64,000 nt of DNA, taken from NCBI RefSeq assembly GCF_900774055.1, contig NZ_CAAGSW010000004.1, positions 1-64,000 of the forward strand, read 5' to 3'. The number at the start of each line of letters is the position of its first letter. Positions within the stretch are counted from its first letter, which is position 1. Source of the DNA: Methanococcoides sp. AM1. Lineage in GTDB: Archaea; Halobacteriota; Methanosarcinia; Methanosarcinales; Methanosarcinaceae. A program made the position numbers and the translations under genes. This document shows, piece after piece, positions 6,643 to 35,418 of the stretch. Below the pieces are notes generated by a model. That model saw only the letters and a program-made list of their open reading frames with translations. It searched no databases and was not told the origin of the DNA.

Positions 6643-8052
6643 TTATTTCTTTGGTGGCCAGTTCTGTTCCATCCAGCCAGGAAGTCTTCCTGAATCTGCC
6701 GGACCGATCATAACAGCGGCACCAGTTTCGTCTTCCACATCACCCTGAAGACGTGCTGCAAGTCCCGGAAGTACAATGACATTGTTATTGAGCTTCTCCT
6801 TCATGTCGAAGCCTGCATCTTCCAGTCCCTTCTTGATCTTTGCAGCTGTGAGCTGACCGCCTGCTACAGCAGCTTCCACACCAATACCATCGGTGTCGAT
6901 AGCTGTAAGGTAGCAGTCAATGCCATTGGATGACAGATCGCTCTCTACAGTGTAGTACGTCAGTGCGAAGTTGGTTGTGACAAGCATAGGTGAATCTGCT
7001 GTTGGTGAACCTACCTCATAGACTGCCGGATCTACTGTGACCGGCTTACGTGGGTCGGTGTAGATGGTGTCACGAATGTGAACTTCTGGAAGCTGTGCGT
7101 ATCCCTCGATACTGTGGAGTATCATGATATCGCCGTACTTGACAGTGAACACTGATGCAACCACGGTTTCCCAGTAGGATGCGCTGACATCGTCATCGTG
7201 TGCCATCCATGCTGTAAGAGGTACTGCCATGATTGGGAATGCAATGTCACGATCACCATTGATGCCTGCCCTTCTGATTTTCAGGAAGTTCTGGAAGGTT
7301 GTTCTCAGTCCCTTGCCTGTTGGGAAGGTTCCCGGATCGAGGACAACATCCTCAATACCATTCTCTGAGAATGTCTTAGCCAGTGATTTGAGCATATCAA
7401 GGTCATTTGGTGCGAACACTGTCACAGGAACATTGTATTCCTGTGCAAGAGCTGCAACATCCTGCCAGTTGTCCTTGTTAGCTGCGTAAAGGAGCGGTCT
7501 TTTCTCTGCTGCCACCTCAAGTCCTGCCTTGAGGACTTCAGGGTTGAATGAACAGAGGACCATTGGGAAGTCAGTGGTTTCCATTACTTTCTTTACTGCT
7601 GCTGCGAACTTTGCAGGATCGTCTGAAATGCTGCGCACTGCGATCATGTCAAGTGTCAGGAAATCTCCTACATAGAATTTCTTGAAGTCCTGGATCTTGT
7701 TGACTCTTTCAACAAGGTCCTTCTCATCCATAGTGTCCCAGACATCGTATGCAAATGCGGTCTTGTTGAAGAATGTAAGTTTATGGCGGTGCAATACATC
7801 ATCGCCACCAATGCTTACTGCCTTTTCACCGACACCGATCACAACTTCCCTGATCTCAGGTGCAAGAAGTGCTTCCAGCTCAGCATACTTCTTCTTGTAC
7901 TTTCCCTCATTTACAAGAGGTGTACAATCAGTAGCTTTCAATGACCTGTCAATAAGGTGGGATGCAAATGCCATACAGGATGTTTCGCCACACTCACCAC
8001 AGTTGGTGCCCGGAAGGAATTTATAAGCTTCAAGAGGGCTGTTAATTTTCAT
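6643..8052 (-). CDS. cdhE: CODH/ACS complex gamma subunit (large corrinoid iron-sulfur protein)
   Basis: 469 residues, full length for the family. The N-terminus has the 4Fe-4S motif NCGECGETSC plus a fourth Cys (residues about 18-43), which delivers low-potential electrons to the corrinoid cobalt. The central part is a TIM-barrel-like domain and the C-terminal part the corrinoid-binding domain. With CdhD it carries the methyl group between tetrahydrosarcinapterin and the A-cluster of CdhC. It is the last gene of the operon, 3 nt after cdhD. Confidence 0.95.
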   Translation of the reverse strand: MKINSPLEAYKFLPGTNCGECGETSCMAFASHLIDRSLKATDCTPLVNEGKYKKKYAELEALLAPEIREVVIGVGEKAVSIGGDDVLHRHKLTFFNKTAFAYDVWDTMDEKDLVERVNKIQDFKKFYVGDFLTLDMIAVRSISDDPAKFAAAVKKVMETTDFPMVLCSFNPEVLKAGLEVAAEKRPLLYAANKDNWQDVAALAQEYNVPVTVFAPNDLDMLKSLAKTFSENGIEDVVLDPGTFPTGKGLRTTFQNFLKIRRAGINGDRDIAFPIMAVPLTAWMAHDDDVSASYWETVVASVFTVKYGDIMILHSIEGYAQLPEVHIRDTIYTDPRKPVTVDPAVYEVGSPTADSPMLVTTNFALTYYTVESDLSSNGIDCYLTAIDTDGIGVEAAVAGGQLTAAKIKKGLEDAGFDMKEKLNNNVIVLPGLAARLQGDVEDETGAAVMIGPADSGRLPGWMEQNWPPKK

Positions 8053-8055
8053 TTT

Positions 8056-9372
8056 TCACACCTCCGCTCCGATCCAGTTGGAAATGTCGATCTCATCTGC
8101 CTCAATGGAACCATAGAGTGTCTGTGTGATCTCCTTGAGTACCTGTACAGATGTTGGATGCATCATCATGAACATATCGTTTCCTGCAAGTGAGAGTGTA
8201 AGACCTGTGACGATCTCCCAGATAGGACCTCTGTACTCACGTGGACCCCAGTCGGAATCCTGGCTGAGTGGAGATTCCTTCATCCATGACTCACGGGCAC
8301 CCCATGCATTGGTAGTACCGGAAGACATTGGGAATGTCAGTTCTTCATCACCCATAAGACCTGCAAGCCTTATACGTTCCATGTTAGTGTAAGCATAGTC
8401 CAGACCGTAACCAAGAGCTGCGGTTGTCGGGTCCATTACGATGCTGTCCCTTGGGACACCACACTGCTTCATGAGCTTCCTGTTGAGTTCCTTCTGTGCG
8501 TTGATCTCAAGCTGTGTCCATGAAAGTACTGCATGGCCGTGGTCTGTTGCAGCCTTTGCAACCCTTTCGTAATCAAGGTTGAGACTTGCAGATGCCAGAA
8601 GTACACGTTCGCCTTCTGCGACCTCAGCTGCCTTTTCGAGAACCTCAGGGTCCTTCTGTGGGTTACCTGAACCACCGATGACAATAGGTACGTCAACTGC
8701 CTGGAGGACATCCTCTACGACCTTTGCTGCTTCCCTTGCAGGTGTATCGTTGATGAGAGGATCTGTTGAGATAAGGTGTATGGTAACCATATCTGCATTG
8801 AAGTCACGTACGACCTTCTTTGCCCATTCCGCAGGATCGTTCATGACATCTTCATAGTTGCCTTTGACAGATTTTGCCATTCCGATAGGCATATCGAAGA
8901 CATCCATTGTAACGTAGTTGCGGTGTGGCATTTCAGCATCGAAGTAATATGGAAGTGCATTCTCGCCACCCAGAGTTACAGTGCTCTTCCTTGAGCCACC
9001 ATCTGCTGATGTGGCACCAAGGGTCACTTCCTGGATAGGAGTTGCCCATTCGCTCATCTTAGAAACATCGAACTTTGCAGGAATGAGATCCTGTATCCTG
9101 GACTGTCCGGCTACAGGTGCCTGTGGAAGTCCGCCCATGGATGCAGCAAAAAGCTGGTCAACAGGGTATCCCAACATCCTTGCGATGTTTGCGACATGTA
9201 ATGAGATCTGTGCTGCTTCATGACCAAGTGCATAGGCCATAGCAGGATTAAGACCTCCGCCTCCACTGATATCAAGCTCGATGTCTCCCTCGATGGTCAC
9301 TCCTTCAAGTGACTCGACATCAAGATCTTTTAGAATATCAGTAAGACCTGATAATTTCATCTTATTTGACAT
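8056..9372 (-). CDS. cdhD: CODH/ACS complex delta subunit (small corrinoid protein)
   Basis: 438 residues with the family N-terminus ([16 protein letters not shown]) and a TIM-barrel region containing [13 protein letters not shown] and [14 protein letters not shown]. It partners CdhE in the corrinoid iron-sulfur methyl-carrier of the acetyl-CoA decarbonylase/synthase. The ATG is preceded by a purine-rich site (GGTGGAATTC). It follows cooC by 40 nt and precedes cdhE by 3 nt, the standard order of aceticlastic methanogen cdh operons. Confidence 0.95.
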
Positions 9373-9412
9373 ATGAATTCCACCATTTGCTTAAATGAAG
9401 TAATGAAAGTTC

Positions 9413-10165
9413 TTATAAACCAAGTTTCTCCGCGATCTTTCCAACCTCTTGTACAGCAACAGACTCGTCAGGAAGATCGAAAAGGGGCAGCCCTTTAAGG
9501 TCTCTTTCTGCGATCATGCTGTCCATCGGAACAGTTCCGATGAGTTCGAGATCAAGATCTGTTGCAGTTTTCTTGATTTCTTCCTTATTGGCATCTGTGA
9601 CCTTGTTCGCAACAACATAGATATTCTTTATGTTGGTCTCAAGCTCCTCGGTAAGTTCCCTGATGCGCTCGGCGGTCCTCAGACCACGTCTTGAGCCATC
9701 GGTAACCACGATGAGATCATCAACATCACGGATGATCTTACGACTGAAATGCTCAAGTCCGGCTTCCGTATCAAGAATAACAACATCATAGTTCTTTACG
9801 ACCTTGTCCATGATACCACGAAGCAGGTTATTGACATAACAATAGCAACCGGAGCCTTCAGGACGACCCATTACGATAAGGTCGTACTTGGGCATCTCCT
9901 CAAGGATCTCATAGATCTTTGATTCGAAGATGGATTCCTTGTTAATGTCAGGAGGGAAGTTGTCCCTTTCATCCTGCATGAACTGCTTCATATCACCGAC
10001 TGTCTTGACAGTCTCGCAACCAAGGGTCTCCGGAAGATTTGTATCCGGGTCAGCGTCGATAGCGAGGACAAGCTTATCAGTTCTTGTAAGATGGCGGATG
10101 AGAAGACTGGTTATTGCAGTCTTCCCTGTTCCACCCTTACCTGTTATTGCAATTACTTTTGTCAC
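9413..10165 (-). CDS. cooC: CO dehydrogenase maturation ATPase CooC-like
   Basis: 250 residues with the MinD/ArsA-type deviant P-loop ITGKGGTGKT at residues 7-16 and a switch region ILDTEAGLEHFSRK. CooC proteins are dimeric ATPases that assist nickel loading of the CODH C-cluster. A CxC pair (GSGCYCYVN) near residue 107 matches the metal-binding Cys pair of the family. It lies between cdhC (12 nt) and cdhD, the position often called cdhX. Confidence 0.9.
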   Translation of the reverse strand: MTKVIAITGKGGTGKTAITSLLIRHLTRTDKLVLAIDADPDTNLPETLGCETVKTVGDMKQFMQDERDNFPPDINKESIFESKIYEILEEMPKYDLIVMGRPEGSGCYCYVNNLLRGIMDKVVKNYDVVILDTEAGLEHFSRKIIRDVDDLIVVTDGSRRGLRTAERIRELTEELETNIKNIYVVANKVTDANKEEIKKTATDLDLELIGTVPMDSMIAERDLKGLPLFDLPDESVAVQEVGKIAEKLGL

Positions 10166-10177
10166 AGAAGGCCTCGT

Positions 10178-11584
10178 TTACTCCTTTTTCTGGATTATCA
10201 CTTTGTCTATGCTGACCTTTGCGTTCTTGAGAATGATCTTAACGCCGCCGGTTCCGGATGAAGGTGGCATCATCATTGGCATACCCTGCATTGGCATTGC
10301 TGCCTGCATCATTGCCGGTGCTGCAAATGTTGCTTCTTCCTCTACCTCTTCTTCTGCTTCAGGTTCTTCCTCTGCTTCCCATCTCTCGACTATTGGATGG
10401 TTCTTGTCAGTAAGGAAGCTCCTAAGTGAATCAAGGTCCGGAGCATCTTCTTCGGTTGCAACCTTATCAGCGATCTCAGAAGGTATGTCAGAAAGCACCC
10501 GGTCTTTCAGGTGTTTTGGCATCCATACGACACGGTCCCATCCGCCATCAGCCTGGATGAACTTTGGTGACCTGAAGTAATTTATCCCGATACCAAGGAA
10601 ACCAGAAACCTGCTTTCCACCACCAGTCTGACCTGCCATTGTAGAGAATGGAAGACCGTTTGGTGCAGTGCCTGCATAATCCCTGTCTACCCAGCCTATA
10701 CCATCGACCTCAGGTATGTAGAAACCTACTACCTCAAAGCAGCCACATGATGTGTGTGGATATTCAAAGAAAGAGTGAAGTTTGATACGATCATATTCAC
10801 CGCTTGAAAGTGATTTTGCGATATCGTTAACACCGGAGAATTCACCGGATTCAGCATCGACAACATCGCCTTTAGGAATAGCGAACTGTGGACCTTCAGG
10901 GTCGACCTTTGCTGCTGCACGACCATCGAACCAGTTGATAGCACCACAAAGAGAGATCCTGTCTGGTGTGATAACACAAACATTGGATGGGGCAAATGAC
11001 TGACAGAGACTGCATCCATAGAATGTGTCTACGTCCTCATCATGCAGGTCACGTGTTCTGTCATCTCTTGACTTGTAGATAGCCTTTACGTTGTCCATCT
11101 CTTTCTCGATCTCTGCAAGATCTGTCACATAGACAGCTTCGACCTTCTCTATGAATGGAAGTTCATTCTTGAAGAGCATCATAACAGCCTGTGCTATTGG
11201 CTCAAATGATGTCAAGCCCTTAGCCACAGCATCCTTGCTTACACGTATCCATACATCATAACGCTGGTTCAAGTGCATTAAACCCTGGATGTAGTTCTGG
11301 AAATCGTGGTTCCTACGTTCGACGATAGACTCAAGGTCTTCTTCCACAAGTTCTCCTGCGATCTTGTAGATCATTGCGAATGGATGTCTTGATCCCTCTT
11401 CCATTTCTGAAAGATCAGGACCGATAAGTGTGAACTTACCATCCTCTACTTCATCCATAGGTGTAGCTCTTACAAGCTCGTAACCTTTTGATTTCGGTCC
11501 TGAGAGTTCGACGTGCATGCCGTCCTTTCTAATTCTTTCCCCTTCGAACATAGGGGATATCTCAAAGGGGAATTCCTCTGCCAT
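10178..11584 (-). CDS. cdhC: CODH/ACS complex beta subunit (acetyl-CoA synthase)
   Basis: 468 residues. A-cluster cysteines are visible: CSLCQSFAPSNVC around residues 188-200 and CGCFE around 278-282. These bind the Ni-Ni-4Fe4S site where CO, the methyl group and CoA are joined or split. The C-terminal 70 residues are an acidic, then Ala/Met/Pro-rich linker (MQAAMPMQGMPMMMPP) before a conserved tail, normal for archaeal CdhC, which lacks the N-terminal domain of bacterial AcsB. A 62-nt gap separates it from cdhB. Confidence 0.95.
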   Translation of the reverse strand: MAEEFPFEISPMFEGERIRKDGMHVELSGPKSKGYELVRATPMDEVEDGKFTLIGPDLSEMEEGSRHPFAMIYKIAGELVEEDLESIVERRNHDFQNYIQGLMHLNQRYDVWIRVSKDAVAKGLTSFEPIAQAVMMLFKNELPFIEKVEAVYVTDLAEIEKEMDNVKAIYKSRDDRTRDLHDEDVDTFYGCSLCQSFAPSNVCVITPDRISLCGAINWFDGRAAAKVDPEGPQFAIPKGDVVDAESGEFSGVNDIAKSLSSGEYDRIKLHSFFEYPHTSCGCFEVVGFYIPEVDGIGWVDRDYAGTAPNGLPFSTMAGQTGGGKQVSGFLGIGINYFRSPKFIQADGGWDRVVWMPKHLKDRVLSDIPSEIADKVATEEDAPDLDSLRSFLTDKNHPIVERWEAEEEPEAEEEVEEEATFAAPAMMQAAMPMQGMPMMMPPSSGTGGVKIILKNAKVSIDKVIIQKKE

Positions 11585-11646
11585 ATTTTGTCCTCCGTAA
11601 TGGTAATCTAATGTTTGTAATCTGATTTATGTGATTTTGTCGGGTA

Positions 11647-12162
11647 TTAGAGATTCTCTATCAATTCGTCCAGTGCTTCAACGTGTATCTCCGGAGTTAT
11701 GTTACCAAAAGACATAGTAGCATTCTGGAGATAATGTCTGTCAATGGAGATGGTCTTGAGCTTAGAGAAGCTCTTCAGACCTGAGTATACCTGATTGATA
11801 TAGTACTTGAAATGTCCCAGTGAAATTATTGTGTCATACTGGCCTTTGCCGTCAAGGCCGGTCCAGTTAGGATCACAAAGATATGTTGCAAGAGCATGGA
11901 CGTTGATGTATTTTGCATCTACACCTGCATCCACAAAACCCTTGATAGAATGGCCGGTAGCAGCTACCGGCATATCAGCTTTCTTTGCGATCTCAATGGC
12001 ACGTTTCAACAACTCTTCGTCTTTAAGGATCTGAGATCCTACAACGAACAGAGGGCGCTTTGCCTTTGATATCAACTTTCCTGCAACATTTGGCTGGACC
12101 GCTTTTGAGGTCTTGCAGCCATATGAGCAGTGCATCTGCGTGTTCTTAATTACGTCGACCAT
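11647..12162 (-). CDS. cdhB: CODH/ACS complex epsilon subunit
   Basis: 171 residues from the chosen ATG at 12162. A longer reading from 12180 is possible, but the site GGAGG in the last codons of cdhA is 6-7 nt from the ATG at 12162, which decides the start. The subunit has a Rossmann-like fold ([14 protein letters not shown]) and forms the alpha2-epsilon2 CO dehydrogenase component with CdhA. The gap to the cdhA stop is only 2 nt, so translation is probably coupled. Confidence 0.93.
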
Positions 12163-12164
12163 GA

Positions 12165-14573
12165 TTAAGCCTCCTTGCAAAGTCTCTTGAGGTTAGTCGG
12201 CTGAGCTGAAACATCGGACTTCATTGCTGGTCCTGAAAGGATCTTCTTCCTCTTCCAGTCGATCTCCCAACCATGTTCTTCTTCCAGTATCTTAAGCAGT
12301 TTTTCACGTTTTGCAAGCGGAAGATCAGTTTCTGTCCTGACAAACTTGTACCAGTCTTCGGGCATGATACCAAGATATTTCTGGCTAAGTTCAATGTAAT
12401 GTGTCAGCTTGATCATCCTACCCATGTTGTTATCACTTGGGCGGATACAGCTCTTTGCAAGCATTGGCATCATTTCCTCAACTGTCTCTGCAGTAGTAAG
12501 CAGATATTCAGGAGCTGCCGGGATCTTCATCTCGCTTCCATTTCTTGCATCGTAGACGCTCCACTTCTCTTCCTCATAAGGCTTTGCAATTAGTGCCCTG
12601 CGGTACTTTGAACCATGAGGACCGAGGATTACCGGGATACCAAGCCTTGAGCAGCCTGTTCCAATGGAAGCTGCCTTCTGGGAGTATGCACCCCATGCAA
12701 CACCAACAGCACCAACACGGTTGAGTGTGTAGTCTGCGATCTCTTCGTAGTTACCTGAGATATTCTTCTGTGCAAAGATAGCTGCGACCTTGATCACTGC
12801 TCCTGTGATATGTGAGTTGGAAACACATGAACCTACGTTCATCAGGCCACCACTCCTAAACCTTGAAGGATATTTTTCATAGAGTGTCTGACCATCTGCG
12901 TCCTTGTACATACCAAGGTCCATTGCAGAACAACCGGAAACAACAACAATATAGTTCCTTCTGAGCATCTCATCTGCAACTGTATAAAGGTCCTTTGTAC
13001 CATCAGGGTAGTTAGAACAACCGACCAGTGCAACAATACCAGGCGTTGTACCAAGAACAAGGTTGACACCTTCTTCCCTGATCTCCGGATCACTGATAGG
13101 TCCTCTGCCGGCACGAACCTTTCCAACTTCCTCACTGATCAAACGCTGTGAGGATTTCTCGATAACGTTAACGATATCGATATCCTTTGGACATGCGTAT
13201 TCACAGCGGCCACATGCGACACACTTGTCATGGATCCACTCGAACTTTGTGAAGTCACCCTCTTTTCCGAGTTTCATTGCTTCGCTTATTGGCAGGTTGT
13301 CAGGACATGCGATCTCACAGGCAAGACAGTGAACACATTTGTCGACCTGATCCTTGAGCTCTTCCTCTGTTGGAAGTGCCTTGATGCCTTTCTGTTCCCT
13401 TATCTCGGACATCATCATAGTAAGCCGAGGTGCAAGCTCTCCGAGCTTCTCATAATCGAATATAAGTGCACCTTTTTCCTTACCGGTAGTAAGGTCTTCA
13501 ATGATGTCTTCAATTTCATCATTTGAACGGTCCTTAAGTCCGTACATTACCTTGTCATTAGTTGTAATAACAGGTATCATAAGCTTACTTGCCTCTTCAA
13601 GGACATCGGCACGGATACACTGTTCATCGACAATGATAACATCAGGAATTCCAGACCTGATCGTCTTAAGCTCTTTTGCAAGAGTACCAACGATCTTTGC
13701 TCGTGGTGGTGTTCTATCACCTGCCTTGTAACGTGTCATATCAAGTGCAGTACAACACAGACCTCCAAGCTCGATCTTATCGTTAAGACCATTGTCTTCC
13801 ATGTAATCAATGATATCAGTGATCGCCGCAACATTGTGTCCGATAACGATCAGTGTAGGCTTTGAAGAATCAAGGCATCCCATCCCGATATCAGCAAGAG
13901 GCGGTTCGTCATCTGCCTTAGGGAAATCAAGACAGGATATCTGTGCGATATCTGAGATCTCCATACCAACATGATCAAGCATACCGCCATGAAGGGCCTT
14001 TGATTCGAAATCAATTGCTGCTCCTTCCTGACCCATGTGAACAGCTGCAAGCAACTGGGTAAGCTGTTCCTCAACATAGCTGAGAACACTATCCAGATCT
14101 CCAAGTGTTTTTGGCTGGACACCTGTGACAAGCTGGACATTTGGAGCAATAATATTAGTAGCACCAACATCAAGAGGGAAATCCTTACCATGCAGGTCGA
14201 TCAGGTGGTGAAGAAGATGTCTTCCGTGCCCTGAGTGTGCTGCTGCTCCTGTAATAACACGAAGCATGAACTCACGTGCATTATGACCCTCAAGATTGAT
14301 ACCACATGCTCCTTCTTTGTTACCGCTAAGATCACATGGTCCAAAAGTACAGTAACAACACTGGTCACACATTGGAGTATAGACCGGATTGTACCTGTCC
14401 AGAATATTGTGATCCCAATCTCTTAGTGATGAGACTCCGGGCTTAACTGTAGGCCCCATCTCAGCATCAATACTTTCAGCTTCCTTTTCAATAGCACCTA
14501 CAATGTTGTTGATGGTGATCTGAACATTTTCAAGGTTGTCGATAGAAAAGCTACCTGTAGTTAGCTCACTCAT
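12165..14573 (-). CDS. cdhA: CODH/ACS complex alpha subunit (Ni-Fe CO dehydrogenase)
   Basis: 802 residues from the ATG at 14573, chosen because a strong GGAGGAGAG site lies just upstream; 11 more in-frame codons exist upstream. It contains the B/D-cluster Cys region ([12 protein letters not shown] near residue 80), two inserted ferredoxin-type clusters specific to archaeal CdhA ([12 protein letters not shown] and [12 protein letters not shown], residues about 405-460) and C-cluster ligands later in the chain ([19 protein letters not shown]). It oxidises CO and reduces CO2 in the cytoplasm. First gene of the operon. Confidence 0.96.
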
Positions 14574-14939
14574 ATGTTTTCTCTCCTCCTGGATTGAACA
14601 TTTCATAGTTAGAGGGGTATATAGATAATTTCCCCGTGGGTGTTACGAATTGTATAAAACGTAATAACTGACGTATAGTCTTTTGAATGTGGATTTAGTA
14701 TGCGCATCTCATATATAAACGCTTTGGCTATTTATCATGATTATACTAGACAATTCTTTTGTGAGTTTACACCGTTACAAACTACAAAAACGATATGTAC
14801 ATCCATTAAATTTTAAAAAATGCACACACATTATCAAATAATAAGGTATGTAGCCGGGTACCTTTAGAAATCATTTTATTTGATAGCAGATATTGACATA
14901 TTAGATCAAGACAATACTAATTATGATCGGGAGGATACT
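14574..14939 (-). promoter_or_regulatory. Divergent intergenic region with candidate cdh promoter
   Basis: This AT-rich region separates cdhA (minus) from the rhomboid gene (plus). The best TATA-like element is at 14711-14719; read on the minus strand it is TTTATATAT. It would give a start near 14690 and an untranslated leader of about 115 nt for the cdh operon. The same bases read ATATATAAA on the plus strand and could also serve the rhomboid gene. No other gene is seen here. Confidence 0.4.
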
Positions 14940-28917: not shown

Positions 28918-30846
28918 TTATTCATCTTCCTCGATGTGTTCGGTAACACCCAGAACAACGATCTTGGTCTCCACCAGTGTATCGGATCCTTCGAGGGTCA
29001 CTTCATCCTTTTTGATGTCAATCTTCACCGAATCCGGGTCAAGACCGATTTCCTTCATATACTCGTAGATGGTGTCCTTGCCAAGCTTAAGTGCATGTTC
29101 CAGCGCATCCTCATAGTCATCGATGATCTCTCTCCCTTTCTCGGAATAGACATAGCACTCCCAGTCCGGTGCGGCCATGGAAACAGGGCGTATCAGTATC
29201 TCAAACCTTCTGATTCCTTTTGCAGCCAATGCTCCTGCAGAATTACCAACACTTGCGAATTCCGGTAGGATGATCTCAGCATCGATAAGCTTCTCTATTT
29301 CTTCGAGATATGCTATCACAGGGCCGCCGATCAGCACCACTGGCACATGCACTTTGAACTGAATCGGTGCTTCTGAATCGAATATATTGCGTATCTCTTC
29401 TCTTGATATATCCTCGAGGAAGAATGACACAAGGTCAGCTGCCATGTTCTTGGCAAACTCCTTCTTGACATATGATGCAAATTCATCTGCATCCATCTTA
29501 TAAAGGGGAGCGAGGTGTTGTGCACCAAGACGTGAAGCTTCATCATTGTATTTCGTATATTCTCCGAGCACATGGAGGGCATCCGTAGGTGTGAAACTGA
29601 TAGGTTGTATCAGCCTTTTCTGCATGAGCGTATCCAGATGTTTTGATGCTGGGTATTTGTTGATACGCGAACGTATCTCCTTAAGAGAAGTCGGTTCGTC
29701 ATGAATGGCATTAAGGATTTCTATTTCTATATCAGTTAGTTCGAGTTGCTCATACTTTGTTCTTATGTAGAATTTGGTAGGCTGGAAGTTCCTCCCCAGT
29801 AATCCTTTGGAAGGAATCGGGTTAGTGGCAAGCTGCCTGAGAAATTTCGGAAACTGTGCTGCTGCTCTGCATAGAGGTATGACTCTTCGTGGACCAAAGT
29901 TGACCTTTCCTGAACTGACCCAGATATCACTATCCCCTCCAAGTGCTGAGGTTTCCATCCTTATGGCTTTGACCCTGGTCTTCCATCCGCCTACAACAGC
30001 ACCGGATTCGCTCATTTCGGGGACACCATTTGTTATAACGGATACGTCAGTACTTGTTCCTCCAACGTCTATAACCGCACAGCTCTCTCTATTTGAGAGG
30101 AAGGAAGCACCAACAAGGCTTCCTGCTGGTCCTGAGAATATGGATTCGATCGGTCTTTCCAGTGCCCTCTTGATACCGACCACAGATCCGTCACATTTGA
30201 GCATGAATATCTTTGATTCCATGCCACGACCTCTTATCTCGGATTCTACACTGGACATGAACCTCTCGGTTATGGGGAGTAATTGTGCATTGAAGAATGC
30301 TGTCACAGCTCTTTCAAATGCTCCCAGGTCCTGTGATAGCTCATGGGCACATACTACAGGCATTCCCGTGATCTTCTTGACGATCTCCTTGACCCTCAAT
30401 TCATGTTCATGATTTCTGATGCTGAAATAGGAAGAAACTGCAAAAGCTGACACATTTTCTTTTGCCCTTTGGGCAAATTCCCTTACTGCATTTTCATCCA
30501 GAGGTTCTGCTTCACCGCCCTTGTGGTCATGGCCTCCCTTTACCTGTATGAAATGTTCTGTGGGCAGGTCAGTGCTGATAACATAATCCCCTACAAGAAT
30601 CAGTCCAACCGGGAATCCCGTACCTTCCAAGATCGTGTTGGTCGAGAGTGTGGTGGATACTGACACAGCATCAACCTGTGAAAGCATCTCTTGGCCAATC
30701 CCGTCAAGTGCTTCCCGGATACCATCAAGGGGATCCGGGTAAGTAGTCAGGGCCTTATAGGATGCAATTATTGAATCATCTGAACTTCTTACAACAACTG
30801 CATCTGTATAGGTACCACCTGCATCAATTCCAAGGTTTAGTTTCAT
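28918..30846 (-). CDS. Hydantoinase/oxoprolinase-family protein
   Basis: 642 residues with a GGAG site before the ATG. The N-terminus LNLGIDAGGTYTDAVVV and the motif CAVIDVGGTSTDVSVITNG are the phosphate-binding loops of the HyuA/oxoprolinase (ASKHA) fold, so ATP use is expected. Residues about 365-450 contain an extra winged-helix-like stretch (ELTDIEIEILNAIHDEP). HyuA enzymes open cyclic amides with ATP; the HyuB partner is absent. It is the last gene of a minus-strand row after the MtmB-like and Orc1-like genes (30-nt gap). It could act on an N-methylated cyclic amide or as an activating ATPase; neither is shown. Confidence 0.8.
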   Translation of the reverse strand: MKLNLGIDAGGTYTDAVVVRSSDDSIIASYKALTTYPDPLDGIREALDGIGQEMLSQVDAVSVSTTLSTNTILEGTGFPVGLILVGDYVISTDLPTEHFIQVKGGHDHKGGEAEPLDENAVREFAQRAKENVSAFAVSSYFSIRNHEHELRVKEIVKKITGMPVVCAHELSQDLGAFERAVTAFFNAQLLPITERFMSSVESEIRGRGMESKIFMLKCDGSVVGIKRALERPIESIFSGPAGSLVGASFLSNRESCAVIDVGGTSTDVSVITNGVPEMSESGAVVGGWKTRVKAIRMETSALGGDSDIWVSSGKVNFGPRRVIPLCRAAAQFPKFLRQLATNPIPSKGLLGRNFQPTKFYIRTKYEQLELTDIEIEILNAIHDEPTSLKEIRSRINKYPASKHLDTLMQKRLIQPISFTPTDALHVLGEYTKYNDEASRLGAQHLAPLYKMDADEFASYVKKEFAKNMAADLVSFFLEDISREEIRNIFDSEAPIQFKVHVPVVLIGGPVIAYLEEIEKLIDAEIILPEFASVGNSAGALAAKGIRRFEILIRPVSMAAPDWECYVYSEKGREIIDDYEDALEHALKLGKDTIYEYMKEIGLDPDSVKIDIKKDEVTLEGSDTLVETKIVVLGVTEHIEEDE

Positions 30847-30876: not shown

Positions 30877-32088
30877 TCACAGTTCCTTAAGCCTGTAGTC
30901 CCTGTAAAGTATGTCTTGCATCTTCTTTGTGTTCTTCCTGAGCGATATGAGACGTGTCTTGCCATATCTTCCCCTGCTCCGCACAGGCGCTGAGATGATC
31001 CCCATCATATCGAACTCTGAGACAATACCTGAGACGCTTGTGCGTCCTAGTGGATTAGTGCCTATACGATCACAGAACTTCCTGTAGAGCATTTCTATCT
31101 GGCCTGTTGTGATCTTATCGTTCAGCTCCCCGTTAAGTCTGATGATGCTGAGCAGGACAAGCTTTGAATTGAGGGGGAGGTTTTCAAGTGAGGTTAACAG
31201 GTCTTTTTCTCCCATCTCTTCATTTGCAAGCAAGACATGTTTTTCAGTTATTTTATCCTCATTCGTGATGTCTGCTATATCTCCTGCTTTTTCCAGCAAA
31301 TTCAGGGCTCTACCACAATCATGCTCCTCTCCGGATAGCTCCGCACATAGTGGTACTACTCCTCCGTCCACAACATCTTCCACAAACGCAATTTTACAGC
31401 GGTCGTTCAGTATCTGCTCAACCTCTTCTTCGCTATATGGTGGAAATACTATGTTCCTGTACTGGAGTGCTGAAACAACAGTTTGCTCGACCTTAGGGTA
31501 AAAGAATATGTCATCACTAATTCCAATAATGCCTATGAATATGTCTTCTTCGATGCTCATATTCTCGCTGGTATAGCTGAGTTCATAAAGTATGTTCTTG
31601 TCTTTCAGAGCCTCGATTTCATCAAAGACCACAATTATTGTGATCCTCTTTTCGTTCAGCGCTTTCCATAATGCTCTGTAATATTTTCCCATTGAGAGTC
31701 CCGTTCTTGGAACTTCTGTTTCGGGTGATACCATGTTCAGCATCTCAAGTATGATCTTGCTGGTCGTGTTGATCTTCCGGCAGTTGATGAAGACCGGAAC
31801 AACGTTAAGGCCTTTCTTCTCAATGTTCACGCTCAGCTGTTTCAGGACAAATCTCACAATAGTTGTCTTACCTGTCCCTTTAATTCCAGATATCAGTACA
31901 TTTGCAGGCTCTCCATGGTGGAGAACAGGTCTTATCAGTGAAGCAAGCTCAGTTATCTGCTTTTCCCTTCCAACAAGCCTGTCCGGAAGATGCCTTGGAG
32001 AAAGCGATGCCCTGTTCCTGAATATATGGATTCCATCTGTTCCGAAAATATCATTCATGTTGATTCCACAGTTATCACTCGATGCCAC
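30877..32088 (-). CDS. Orc1/Cdc6-like AAA+ ATPase
   Basis: 403 residues from a GTG that overlaps the mtmB-like stop by 14 nt; an ATG at 32058 is an alternative start. It has the Orc1/Cdc6 N-terminal pattern (LSPRHLPDRLVGREKQI), Walker A GIKGTGKTT (residues 68-76), Walker B VVFDEIE (154-160) and a C-terminal winged helix ending GRYGKTRLISL. The sensor-2/arginine region, usually DPRVxSSL, reads VEQTVVSAL and is degenerate. Archaeal Orc1/Cdc6 proteins bind origins, but here it sits inside a metabolic operon, so a regulatory role is possible. Confidence 0.85.
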   Translation of the reverse strand: MASSDNCGINMNDIFGTDGIHIFRNRASLSPRHLPDRLVGREKQITELASLIRPVLHHGEPANVLISGIKGTGKTTIVRFVLKQLSVNIEKKGLNVVPVFINCRKINTTSKIILEMLNMVSPETEVPRTGLSMGKYYRALWKALNEKRITIIVVFDEIEALKDKNILYELSYTSENMSIEEDIFIGIIGISDDIFFYPKVEQTVVSALQYRNIVFPPYSEEEVEQILNDRCKIAFVEDVVDGGVVPLCAELSGEEHDCGRALNLLEKAGDIADITNEDKITEKHVLLANEEMGEKDLLTSLENLPLNSKLVLLSIIRLNGELNDKITTGQIEMLYRKFCDRIGTNPLGRTSVSGIVSEFDMMGIISAPVRSRGRYGKTRLISLRKNTKKMQDILYRDYRLKEL

Positions 32089-33445
32089 AGTATTTTCTAA
32101 CTTCTGCGAATACTTCCTTGTAGAGTTTCATGTATTCGTCTGTAGGCTTCATTTCATACTCTGATTTCACTTTATAGCATTCGTTAAAAGGTTTGCCTTC
32201 GGGAGCATGTACCAACAGGTTCTCATATTTCCTATAGATGTTCCGGGCAGCCTCATCTGCTTCCAGAAGTGTCAGGCCGGTTGCCATGTGTGCAACTTCT
32301 CCCATGAACCTGGATTCAAGTCCTGTGGAGTGATCGGTACCTGCTCCGCGGGCACCCACTGGCCCTATCAGTACGTCCCTTCCACAAACAGTATCTCCTA
32401 TAGCTTGTGCAGCGGTCTCATAGAACATCATATCAGTACAGCAGCCTGCAAGATTCCAGTAATATCTTCCTATGTAATGGTGCATGTTACGTGAAATAGC
32501 AAGGGATGATAGGTTAGAACCCCACATGACCTCTTTTGCTGAGGATGAATTTGTATTCACATGGACTGCACCGGAAACGTGTAAACTGGCACCAGTGAGC
32601 AGCTTTGATTGTATGGTCTCTGCAACATCAACGATAGCAAGTCCTTCAGGTGAGCCGATACCTGTTCCTCCAAAAACCGGACACTGGCCGCTCAGGAAAT
32701 GGTTACCGTGCTCAAGGTGGAATATGGATTTATAGAATGTCTCATAGTCAGTCTTAAGCTCATCCAGCTGGTAGGCCTCCTGGACATCTGCACTGGAGTA
32801 CAGTTCATCGGAAGAAACCAGCATATATGCCTGTGAGATGGTCGGTGTTCCGGGTCCCATCAATGTAAGACCTTCACGTCCTGCAAGTTTTGTTGCAAGC
32901 CTTTCCTCTCTGGCTTCCTTCAGCGCGGCAAGCATCTCAAATGGTGTTTTCCCGCGTATTCCTTTACCTCCCATCTTTTCAAGTGCACCTGCATATATAC
33001 CCTGTACAATAGGCTCCATGGCAGAACTTACGTGAACTTCAAGGAAGTTCTCCTCGGAAACAGTACCTCCCATAGGCCCTCCGATTATGACCGGTGGTTC
33101 GGAGTCCATAATGTACCTGAAGGGAACTGTGATCTTTTCATTCTTTCTTCCTATCTCAAGCGTTTCGGAAGTGCTCAGGGACTTTACAATATCCTCTTCT
33201 TCGATCTGTATGGTTTTCTTTGTGTCAATGCAGTAGATGCCCACAGATGTCACTAACTGGACTGCAGCTTCAAATACGGAGTCTGCAAGGCTTGTATCAG
33301 TTGGTACAATACTTTCTCCGTCATATTTGATATCGAATTGTTCTGCCAGTTCCTGTGATTTCATGAATACTTCCATATCATGTTCATTTTCTGATTTTTC
33401 TTCACCTGTAGTGGCAGATCTGAGGTACTTGTATATGTTGTTCAT
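32075..33445 (-). CDS. MtmB-family methyltransferase homolog without pyrrolysine
   Basis: 456 residues; AAAGGAG sits 8 nt before the ATG. It aligns over its whole length with monomethylamine:corrinoid methyltransferase MtmB (about 458 residues): IYCIDTKKTIQ near the start, IIGGPMGG.VSEE, GKTPFEMLAA, QCPVFGGTGIG, EGLAIVDVAE, LAGCCTDM, YETAAQAIGDTVCGR, TGLESRFMGEVAHM and a C-terminal EGKPFNECYKV. In MtmB an amber codon gives pyrrolysine in the strand GVOGPET. Here the matching strand is LTLMGPGT with an ordinary ATG at 32860-32858 (Met196). So it should not use the pyrrolysine chemistry. Substrate and corrinoid partner are unknown. Confidence 0.85.
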   Translation of the reverse strand: MNNIYKYLRSATTGEEKSENEHDMEVFMKSQELAEQFDIKYDGESIVPTDTSLADSVFEAAVQLVTSVGIYCIDTKKTIQIEEEDIVKSLSTSETLEIGRKNEKITVPFRYIMDSEPPVIIGGPMGGTVSEENFLEVHVSSAMEPIVQGIYAGALEKMGGKGIRGKTPFEMLAALKEAREERLATKLAGREGLTLMGPGTPTISQAYMLVSSDELYSSADVQEAYQLDELKTDYETFYKSIFHLEHGNHFLSGQCPVFGGTGIGSPEGLAIVDVAETIQSKLLTGASLHVSGAVHVNTNSSSAKEVMWGSNLSSLAISRNMHHYIGRYYWNLAGCCTDMMFYETAAQAIGDTVCGRDVLIGPVGARGAGTDHSTGLESRFMGEVAHMATGLTLLEADEAARNIYRKYENLLVHAPEGKPFNECYKVKSEYEMKPTDEYMKLYKEVFAEVRKYCGIE

Positions 33446-34068
33446 AATATTGACTCCTTTATTTTCCCGTGTTTGACTTTTTTCATTTCATTTTGTTTTA
33501 CTGTTAATCTTGTGAAAACTCCATGAAATTATTCCCTAAACCTCCATTGACATGGAATCCATATATAGTTTTCCATGCAAATCATACATGAACCTATTCT
33601 GACATGGAAGGAAACTGGATACCCTCTCATTTTCACCTGTGAATAGTATCAGATCTAGTTAGAGAATGCTGCTCCTTCTGAAGGATTAAAATGATCTTCT
33701 TGCATTGAATAAAGATTAAACAAAGTTAGTTGTCAATAAGATAGATCTAATCGAAAAGTTGATTTTTTAAATCAACTTTTGGCATTCTCCACAAGTTGAC
33801 CCCATTGATTTAACCGCTCTTGAATGTGTTTATTCAAAGTAAATGCTATCTAGTCCTTAGTATTCTTCTTCATATAGTGTAAAGAACCCTTGGAAACCCC
33901 TCACTTTCATTGTCTCTTTTTGTCGTTTTAATGTCGCTTTTCACTTGTCGCATTTGTTTCCCGAAATATTCACCTGATTCCCATCAAAAAGCGACAAAAA
34001 CGACTATAATAGACATCCTTATATAGTTCCGACCTGCAACATTATCTACTGTAAAAGAGGAGTAAACT
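33446..34068. promoter_or_regulatory. 623-bp divergent regulatory region, mtmB-like and DUF1638 genes
   Basis: No gene is seen. For the mtmB-like gene (minus) a TATA element (33560-33569) is flanked by the perfect inverted repeat CATGGAA (33551-33557) and TTCCATG (33571-33577); TGACATGGAA recurs at 33548-33557 and 33600-33609, 52 bp apart. For the DUF1638 gene (plus) a TTATATAG box lies at about 34019-34026. Confidence 0.6.
33916..34004 (+). promoter_or_regulatory. GTCG-repeat operator region before the DUF1638 gene
   Basis: Motifs TTTTGTCGTTTT, ATGTCGCTTTT and TTGTCGCATTT (33918-33953) are followed by the reverse-complement pair AAAAAGCGACAAAAACGAC at 33986-34004, which ends 14 nt before the TATA box. 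The left pair and the right pair form an inverted repeat about 50 bp apart, as expected for a dimeric or looping regulator. Confidence 0.5.
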
Positions 34069-34866
34069 ATGCCTGTAATAAGCCTGATAGGATGCAGGAT
34101 GTTCGAAGATGAGATCGTTCATCTTGTTGAACATGATCCTTTGATAGATAATCTGATCGTTGTCGAGAACAAGGACTGTGAAGGTCTGGTAAAGAAGCTT
34201 GATGACATAGGGGTTTCTTACAAACTTATACCTGAAAGCAAACTGGCATCCATGTGCTCAGATCAGTGTACTGAATCCTATTGCTTTATTGTGAATATAC
34301 TTGAATTTGCATTACATGCTATACCCACCAACCTCAAATCCGAGGTATATAAGAAAGTAGAGGGCATGTCATCTTACTCGGAAGGTATACTTTTGTTCTA
34401 TGGACTTTGCGGTAATGTCCTGGGTGATGTTGAAAGCGATCTCGAGGATCTTGAATGCAAGATCTGTATTCTCAAGGAAGAGAACGGCGAGATCATCGAT
34501 GATTGCATCGGGGCAGTGCTTGGAGGCAGAGAGGCATACCTGCATCACCTCAAGAGCTTCAAAGGAATAGGTACTTTTTTCCTGACACCCATGTGGGCTG
34601 CGAACTGGGGAGATATGCTTGTTGCCGGTGGTTTTGGAAAGGACCCAAATGATACTGAAACTTCTAAATTCGTTTTTGATGCAGTCGGCTACAAGAAAGT
34701 AGCAAAATTGGATACCGGACTGCGTTATGAAAAGAAGTTCGATGATATCGTTAAGGAGTTCGCTGAGATATTCGACTTTGATATCCTGAATATCGAGGGA
34801 GAGCTTGGCCTCATTGAAGGCTGCTACAGGAAGTTCCGCAATGAAGTTTTGAAAAGGGAACACTGA
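34069..34866 (+). CDS. DUF1638 protein
   Basis: 265 residues, soluble, with several Cys (GCRMF, CSDQCTESYC, YGLCGNVLG) that could bind metal or cobalamin-related cofactors. GLCGN, GGREAYLHHLKSFKG and MWAANWGDM are family-type stretches. DUF1638 genes often lie by corrinoid methyltransferase genes in methanogens and acetogens; here it is divergent from the mtmB-like gene. Biochemical role unknown. Confidence 0.75.
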   Translation: MPVISLIGCRMFEDEIVHLVEHDPLIDNLIVVENKDCEGLVKKLDDIGVSYKLIPESKLASMCSDQCTESYCFIVNILEFALHAIPTNLKSEVYKKVEGMSSYSEGILLFYGLCGNVLGDVESDLEDLECKICILKEENGEIIDDCIGAVLGGREAYLHHLKSFKGIGTFFLTPMWAANWGDMLVAGGFGKDPNDTETSKFVFDAVGYKKVAKLDTGLRYEKKFDDIVKEFAEIFDFDILNIEGELGLIEGCYRKFRNEVLKREH

Positions 34867-34986
34867 TCAGTCGAATTCCATGTTGCTTGTCCCCTGCATA
34901 ATATTATTAAGGTTGTGTGCATTACCTGAACTGTAAGATCCATCGATCTATAAATCCATTTATCCATATATCTAGGGTGATCTTTC

Positions 34987-35418
34987 GTGAAACGAGTACT
35001 TGCCACAGGAACTTTTGACATTTTACATCCCGGACATGTTTTCTTCTTAAGTAGTGCCCGTGCTCGTGGTGATGAGCTTTATGTTCTGGTTGCAAGGGAT
35101 TCCATGATAAGGCACAAAGCAAAGCCCATTGTTCCTGAAGAACAGAGACTTGATGTGATAAGTGCTTTAAGAGTAGTAGATAAAGCATTACTTGGAAGTG
35201 AAAAGGATATTTTCGAGCCTTTGTACGAGATCGACCCCGACATTATCGTTCTTGGTCACGACCAGACCTTTGATATTGAGGAACTTCAGAAAAGCCTGAC
35301 AGAAAGAGGCTTTAAGGCAAAGGTCACACGCATCGATGAATCACTGAAGTGTCCACTATACAGCAGTGGGAGAATTGTCAATAAAATACTCGAGCGATAC
35401 TGCGAGAGTAGAGACTGA
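34987..35418 (+). CDS. ribL: Archaeal FAD synthase
   Basis: 143 residues of the nucleotidyltransferase fold: ATGTFDILHPGHVFFL carries the HxGH active site, and LGHDQTFD and a C-terminal SSGRIV complete the pocket. Archaeal RibL adenylates FMN to FAD. The lumazine synthase gene nearby supports a flavin role. Start: the ATG-less GTG at 34987 preceded by GGGTGATC. Confidence 0.88.
   Translation: MKRVLATGTFDILHPGHVFFLSSARARGDELYVLVARDSMIRHKAKPIVPEEQRLDVISALRVVDKALLGSEKDIFEPLYEIDPDIIVLGHDQTFDIEELQKSLTERGFKAKVTRIDESLKCPLYSSGRIVNKILERYCESRD

What the first reader, a model, noticed from the sequence alone, without database searches (positions are those of the whole stretch)
32075..33445. MtmB homolog with Met in place of pyrrolysine
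The gene aligns end to end with monomethylamine methyltransferase MtmB, but the amber/pyrrolysine codon position (strand LTLMGPGT) is an ordinary ATG at 32860-32858. In the related MttB family, loss of pyrrolysine went with a switch to quaternary amines such as glycine betaine. A non-pyrrolysine branch of MtmB would be a parallel case with an unknown methyl donor. To my knowledge no substrate is established for such MtmB proteins.
Basis: partly seen in the sequence, partly recalled or inferred. Interest (0 to 1): 0.88.

Follow-up and report, generated by a model that had tools for sequence, protein, structure and literature searches.

The report
Pyrrolysine-free MtmB clade, donor unknown
This methane-making marine archaeon carries a conserved relative of the methylamine enzyme MtmB that has an ordinary methionine where MtmB needs the rare amino acid pyrrolysine; a different pyrrolysine-free branch was recently shown to take methyl groups from tetramethylammonium and choline, but what this branch acts on is still unknown.

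Summary
Window 32075-33445(-) encodes a 456-aa MtmB homolog (536 bits). Met196, codon ATG at 32858-32860, aligns with Pyl202 of M. barkeri MtmB. In March 2026 a pyrrolysine-free MtmB homolog, MtqB of Methanococcoides methylutens Q3c, was shown to demethylate tetramethylammonium and choline (PMC13044021). The window genome is Methanococcoides sp. AM1, a choline user. Its MtqB ortholog is very probably another gene (C4:364674-366059), directly downstream of its corrinoid gene and only 29% identical to the window protein. The window protein belongs to a separate, fully supported clade. That clade is found in 47 of 112 Methanosarcinaceae genomes and was not seen in Methanosarcina. No member contains an in-frame amber codon, and the gene is under strong purifying selection. 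Acidic E259 is lost and an aromatic set (Y328, Y329, W330) is gained, similar in part to MtqB. Gene neighbours tie the clade to methyl transfer: mtbA and mtmCB, a betaine-type BCCT transporter, an orc1/cdc6-hydantoinase operon, and in one species a corrinoid gene whose ortholog is an orphan gene in AM1. Best reading: a corrinoid-dependent demethylase for an unidentified, probably quaternary, N-methyl donor.

The parts
32075..33445 (-). Pyl-free MtmB homolog (456 aa), predicted TIM-barrel corrinoid methyltransferase; the finding itself
   Evidence: PF05369 536 bits; 1l2q alignment; AF2 model TM 0.90 to MtmB; own clade in ML tree
32858..32860 (-). ATG codon for Met196, at the position of Pyl202 of M. 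barkeri MtmB
30877..32088 (-). Orc1/Cdc6-type AAA+ ATPase with winged helix (403 aa); start overlaps the mtmB-like stop by 14 nt
   Evidence: TIGR02928 339 bits, Cdc6_C/Cdc6_lid; downstream of the gene in all Methanococcoides loci examined, in EBM-47 and in Methanohalophilus G053, and near it in M. bombayensis
28918..30846 (-). Hydantoinase/oxoprolinase-A-like ASKHA protein (642 aa), third gene of the operon
   Evidence: PF05378/PF01968; third gene in Methanococcoides and G053 loci; one of 5-9 paralogs in many family genomes
34069..34866 (+). DUF1638 protein, divergent neighbour. Its position here is specific to this genome; a different DUF1638 paralog is the one linked to the candidate corrinoid gene. 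Membership in the system is weak.
   Evidence: PF07796 148 bits; orthologs lie elsewhere in other Methanococcoides, including G005, which lacks the mtmB-like gene; 44% to the linked paralog

Best explanation
The gene encodes the substrate-specific methyltransferase (an 'MtxB') of a distinct Pyl-free MtmB clade. Inferred mechanism: the TIM barrel holds an N-methyl donor that is already activated, most likely a quaternary ammonium compound, in a pocket where Pyl202 is replaced by Met, the acidic E259 is lost, and an aromatic set (Y328/Y329/W330) can hold a cationic N-methyl group by cation-pi contact. With no ammonia leaving group to activate, no pyrrolysine adduct is needed. The methyl group goes to Co(I) of a small corrinoid protein and then through MtbA to coenzyme M. 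In AM1 the most likely corrinoid partner is the orphan protein at C3:67422-68114. Shown here: homology, fold, residue changes, clade, conservation, neighbours and co-occurrence. Inferred: methyl transfer itself, the class of donor and the partner. The exact donor is not identified.
For: MtmB family and fold. Purifying selection, dN/dS 0.03-0.17. Site changes: 202 Met in 41/50; 259 E to G/S/C/D in 50/50; 333 Q to Y in 48/50; 335 Y to W in 46/50. The probable MtqB clade also lacks acid at 259 and has Y at 333 in 6/7 and F at 335 in 3/7, and MtqB acts on tetramethylammonium and choline (PMC13044021). In 18 Methanolobus/Methanomethylovorans-type loci the gene is divergent from a neighbour in the MtbA cluster (two representatives verified as MtbA by NF041608), and where the contig continues it usually lies beside Pyl mtmCB. 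In 6 loci it is divergent from a BCCT transporter. In M. bombayensis a corrinoid gene sits 42 bp upstream; it groups 100/100 with the AM1 orphan corrinoid. That corrinoid, at 58% identity or more, occurs in 10 genomes, all with halophile-type members of the clade (Fisher p about 1e-8). Its DUF1638 neighbour (M. bombayensis and three Methanohalophilus) belongs to a family needed with corrinoid proteins in Phaeobacter (PMC5764234).
Against: No activity data exist for any member. M. mahii carries a member beside a BCCT gene, plus the corrinoid, yet does not grow on choline or betaine (PMC3017947); its pocket is atypical (V202, C259, R335). The partner corrinoid is missing in 12 of 22 genomes with halophile-type copies. 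The gene usually has no corrinoid gene next to it, unlike characterised MtxB genes. The Fisher test ignores relatedness of the genomes. An aromatic set also fits sulfonium or other methyl donors. The roles of E259, Q333 and Y335 in M. barkeri MtmB are recalled from the crystallography, not tested here.
Confidence: 0.55

Rival explanations
1. It is MtqB, the already characterised tetramethylammonium/choline methyltransferase.
For: Both are Pyl-free MtmB homologs of Methanococcoides with aromatic pockets, and AM1 uses choline (PMC6498239).
Against: PMC13044021 gives 78% identity of Q3c MtqB to the AM1 homolog and places MtqB directly downstream of an MtbC-like corrinoid gene. AM1 has exactly such a gene, C4:364674-366059 (corrinoid 5 bp upstream; that corrinoid's best named NCBIfam equivalog is MtbC). 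It is 77% identical to its G001 ortholog and 29% to the window protein. The window gene has no corrinoid neighbour and is 88-96% identical in most Methanococcoides. The paper's MtqB clade includes Methanosarcina and has a fully conserved Met and Cys; the C4:364674 clade includes a g7 genome of 4.0 Mb and has C259/M260 in 7/7, the window clade in 1/50 and 0/50.
Confidence: 0.03
2. It demethylates choline or a choline derivative, as a second choline methyltransferase beside MtqB.
For: M. vulcani SLH33 (G004, contig 158,649 bp as in FOHQ01000007) uses betaine, choline and dimethylethanolamine (title of the species description cited in PMC6498239). It has the window clade gene but no MtqB ortholog.
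Against: M. mahii has a member and does not use choline (PMC3017947). Pyl-free MttB proteins could serve choline in M. vulcani. M. burtonii uses dimethylethanolamine but not choline or betaine (PMC4239356) and lacks the clade (G005), so the clade is not needed for dimethylethanolamine.
Confidence: 0.2
3. It is a non-growth enzyme that demethylates an osmolyte such as glycine betaine or a related betaine during salt change, or a detoxifying or scavenging demethylase.
For: The clade occurs mainly in marine and salt-loving genera. BCCT (betaine/choline/carnitine) genes are divergent neighbours in 6 loci, best model NF047988 glycine betaine uptake, 604 bits but below its 650-bit cut-off. An Arg/Lys at 327 is conserved in 50/50.
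Against: BCCT linkage is confined to one subgroup. Methanolobus/Methanomethylovorans copies sit in the energy-yielding methylamine cluster instead. R327 may point out of the barrel. Methanolobus vulcani B1d demethylates betaine with MtgB (PMC6855144).
Confidence: 0.2
4. It is a catalytically dead or regulatory relative (pseudoenzyme or sensor), not a methyltransferase.
For: Pyl is lost, there is usually no adjacent corrinoid gene, and it is linked to an Orc1/Cdc6-type ATPase with a winged helix.
Against: The pocket changes are consistent across 50 members and dN/dS is low. It is adjacent to mtbA and mtmCB, and to a corrinoid gene in M. bombayensis and SMBSF72. MtqB shows that a Pyl-free MtmB can be active.
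Confidence: 0.1

Closest known systems
MtqB, tetramethylammonium/choline:corrinoid methyltransferase of Methanococcoides methylutens Q3c (PMC13044021)
   Same: Pyl-free homolog of MtmB, no acid at 259, aromatic pocket, same genus
   Different: The probable ortholog in AM1 is a different gene at 29% identity and in a different clade; MtqB is encoded beside MtqC, the window gene is not; different residues at 202, 259 and 260
MtmB, monomethylamine methyltransferase with pyrrolysine (M. barkeri, PDB 1l2q/1nth/1tv2)
   Same: Fold (TM 0.90), full-length alignment, E229 kept, 33% identity
   Different: Met in place of Pyl202; E259, Q333 and Y335 replaced; no amber codon; not encoded directly behind mtmC
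MtgB and other Pyl-free MttB (COG5598) quaternary amine methyltransferases
   Same: Loss of Pyl in a methylamine methyltransferase family; donor class proposed here
   Different: Separate family; only a distant fold match (TM about 0.5, 11% identity)

Membership tests
MtmB family (PF05369) | Full-length match to the family model and TIM-barrel fold | tested here: met
   536 bits over 2-448/450; TM 0.90 to 1l2q
Pyl-type monomethylamine methyltransferase MtmB | In-frame amber codon (Pyl) at position 202 | tested here: not met
   ATG at 32858-32860; no TAG in any of 50 clade members
Pyl-type monomethylamine methyltransferase MtmB | E259, Q333, Y335 around Pyl | tested here: not met
   G253, Y328, W330 in the window protein
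Pyl-type monomethylamine methyltransferase MtmB | Monomethylamine:MtmC methyl transfer | not testable with these tools
   Needs an enzyme assay
MtqB (tetramethylammonium/choline) | Gene directly downstream of the MtqC corrinoid gene | tested here: not met
   No corrinoid neighbour in AM1 or other Methanococcoides loci; C4:364674 has this arrangement
MtqB (tetramethylammonium/choline) | About 78% identity between the AM1 homolog and Q3c MtqB | tested here: inconclusive
   The Q3c sequence is not held; the AM1 gene at C4:364674 fits (77% to G001), the window gene does not (88-96% within most of the genus, 81% in two genomes)
MtqB (tetramethylammonium/choline) | Fully conserved active-site Met and Cys reported for the clade | tested here: inconclusive
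   C259/M260 in 7/7 of the C4:364674 clade, rare or absent in the window clade; that these are the paper's two residues is inferred, as its figure is not held
MtqB (tetramethylammonium/choline) | Tetramethylammonium or choline demethylation | not testable with these tools
   Needs an enzyme assay
Corrinoid-dependent MtxB system | Cognate corrinoid protein | tested here: inconclusive
   Adjacent in M. bombayensis and SMBSF72; the M. bombayensis ortholog is an orphan gene in AM1; 10 of 22 halophile-type genomes have it

The most novel reading that the evidence does not exclude
A second, independent Pyl-free MtmB methyltransferase system with a donor other than monomethylamine, tetramethylammonium and choline, with its own corrinoid protein encoded away from it in most genomes, conserved across nearly all salt-loving methylotrophic Methanosarcinaceae and overlooked in methane budgets.
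Probability: 0.4. Interest if true: 0.75.

Novelty: new variant of a known kind. Interest (0 to 1): 0.5.

Why it matters
Pyl-free MttB proteins changed the view of how quaternary amines feed methane production, and MtqB extended this to MtmB in 2026. This clade is more widespread than the probable MtqB clade in the family searched (47 genomes against five at 42-100% identity) and has no assigned donor, so it may hide a further methane source in marine and saline sediment. It also gives a compact test of what replaces pyrrolysine: one pocket with Met, Tyr and Trp, and candidate partners that can be expressed together.

Tried and rejected
Window gene as MtqB: rejected on gene order, identity pattern, tree and active-site residues. 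DUF1638 at 34069 as a conserved partner: rejected, since its orthologs lie elsewhere in other Methanococcoides and another paralog is linked to the corrinoid. Hydantoinase-like gene as a specific clue to donor chemistry (N-methylhydantoin): not pursued, as it is one of 5-9 paralogs in many genomes. Frameshift or read-through of a hidden amber codon: no TAG in the clade. Stop codons flagged in search rows for G058 and G074 copies: not real breaks, the ORFs are intact. Plasmid search for relatives of C4:364674: no match. No RNA family in 33000-35000. First AF2 model was poor at the active site; a mixed alignment improved it. The Q3c genome is not in the collections and supplements were closed, so direct comparison with MtqB was impossible. 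Bacterial and Asgard Pyl-free MtmBs could not be sampled. The number of Pyl losses or gains cannot be read from an unrooted tree.

Full report
Observation. The ORF 32075-33445(-) encodes 456 aa and matches the MtmB family end to end (536 bits). In the alignment to M. barkeri MtmB (PDB 1l2q, E 4e-75) Pyl202 falls on Met196, codon ATG at 32858-32860. The predicted structure (mean pLDDT 80) superposes on MtmB crystal structures with TM 0.90, with residue 196 on a barrel strand; the stretch 198-217 is poorly predicted.

Which genome. The window lies in an assembly of 2,482,578 bp in 46 contigs whose contig C3 is exactly 433,016 bp. PMC6498239 reports Methanococcoides sp. AM1 as 2.48 Mbp, 46 contigs, N50 433,016, and a choline user. 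The genome is therefore taken to be AM1.

What is already published. PMC13044021 (March 2026) shows that a Pyl-free MtmB homolog of Methanococcoides methylutens Q3c, MtqB, demethylates tetramethylammonium and choline (and weakly monomethylamine), is induced on both, and lies directly downstream of an MtbC-like corrinoid gene, MtqC. It is 78% identical to the AM1 homolog. The paper notes several other Pyl-free mtmB genes in Q3c and says the remaining ones are of unknown function.

The window gene is very probably not MtqB. AM1 has four mtmB genes: two with one TAG, the window gene, and C4:364674-366059. The last sits 5 bp behind a corrinoid gene whose best named NCBIfam equivalog is MtbC. It is 77% identical to an ortholog in G001, 54% in G007 and 47% in the g7 genome G113. 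Its clade has C259 and M260 in 7/7. All this fits MtqB as described. The window protein is 29% identical to it, has no corrinoid neighbour, and is 88-96% identical in most Methanococcoides. A maximum-likelihood tree of 83 sequences gives the window clade 100/99 support, apart from the probable MtqB clade, the Pyl clade and a third Pyl-free clade. The Q3c sequence itself was not available.

Distribution. A profile of the clade finds 47 of 112 Methanosarcinaceae genomes above 600 bits, with a clean gap down to 340 bits. Named loci include Methanococcoides, Methanolobus, Methanomethylovorans, Methanosalsum and Methanohalobium, and two MAGs outside the family that branch early, JdFR-19 and B74_G9; M. 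mahii is identified by its exact genome size (2,012,424 bp; PMC3017947). No genome of group g7, taken to be Methanosarcina, has it, nor does G005, taken from its size to be M. burtonii. No member has an in-frame TAG. dN/dS within Methanococcoides is 0.03-0.17.

Pocket. Against the M. barkeri numbering, 50 clade members show 202 Met in 41 (else F, L, V, I); 259 Glu lost in all (G in 43); 333 Gln to Tyr in 48; 335 Tyr to Trp in 46; 229 Glu kept in 47; and an Arg/Lys at 332 in 50. In the window protein these are M196, G253, Y328, W330, E223 and R327. The probable MtqB clade changes the same places (C259, mostly Y333, F335 in three). That two Pyl-free clades both drop the acid and gain aromatic side chains suits a cationic methyl donor; this is inference.

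Neighbourhood. Three arrangements recur. In 18 Methanolobus/Methanomethylovorans-type loci the gene is divergent from mtbA (two checked: NF041608, 646 and 661 bits, above cut-off) and, where the contig continues, usually convergent with Pyl mtmCB. In six loci, three of them Methanohalophilus, it is divergent from a BCCT transporter (BCCT 613 bits; glycine betaine model 604 bits, below its 650 cut-off). In Methanococcoides and one Methanohalophilus (G053) it heads an operon with an Orc1/Cdc6-type ATPase and a hydantoinase-A-like protein; in several strains, including AM1, the first two genes overlap by 14 nt or more.

Corrinoid partner. In M. bombayensis (L068) a corrinoid gene lies about 40 bp upstream of the clade gene. 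In a corrinoid tree it groups 100/100 with an orphan AM1 corrinoid at C3:67422-68114. At 58% identity or more this corrinoid occurs in 10 genomes, all with halophile-type clade genes (Fisher p about 1e-8, which ignores relatedness). In M. bombayensis and three Methanohalophilus it lies near a DUF1638 gene whose AM1 ortholog (80%) is at C3:241579. DUF1638 mutants in Phaeobacter need methionine, and the authors place the protein with corrinoid reactivation (PMC5764234). Twelve genomes with halophile-type copies lack this corrinoid, so another corrinoid protein must serve there.

Physiology. M. vulcani SLH33 (G004) has the clade gene and no MtqB ortholog, yet uses betaine, choline and dimethylethanolamine. 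M. mahii has the gene beside a BCCT gene (very probably Mmah_1398) but does not grow on choline or betaine; its pocket is atypical. M. burtonii and M. methylutens DSM 2657 use dimethylethanolamine but not choline or betaine (PMC4239356). No single known donor fits all.

Conclusion. The sequence feature is real and conserved. It is a distinct Pyl-free MtmB clade, best explained as a corrinoid-dependent demethylase of an unidentified, probably quaternary, methyl donor. The general idea was published in 2026 for a sister clade; the donor of this clade is open and directly testable.

Noticed in passing
L008 (AM1 C4:355000-374900), 9672-11716: Probable mtqCB pair of AM1, beside Pyl-type and Pyl-free mttB, an EamA permease and mtbCB; a MoxR-type ATPase gene and a 1007-aa gene lie just downstream, a pairing repeated in G001 and G011.
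   Followed up: partly
L053, L055, L057, L142-L145: A third Pyl-free MtmB clade with V, T or F at the Pyl position, in several Methanosarcinaceae, often near mttB, mtbB and corrinoid genes; no function known to me.
   Followed up: no
window 28918-30846: Hydantoinase/oxoprolinase-A-like proteins of about 640 aa occur in 5-9 copies in many Methanosarcinaceae genomes, some close to methyltransferase genes; their role there is unexplained.
   Followed up: partly
L041 10260-11452: The Orc1/Cdc6-like gene behind the mtmB-like gene is split into two ORFs in MAG SMBSF09 while both flanking genes stay intact.
   Followed up: no
L086, L089: Early-branching members (56% identity) in MAGs B74_G9 (Guaymas) and JdFR-19, outside Methanosarcinaceae.
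   Followed up: no
window 6643-14606: Apparent CODH/acetyl-CoA synthase operon, read from the translations only.
   Followed up: no
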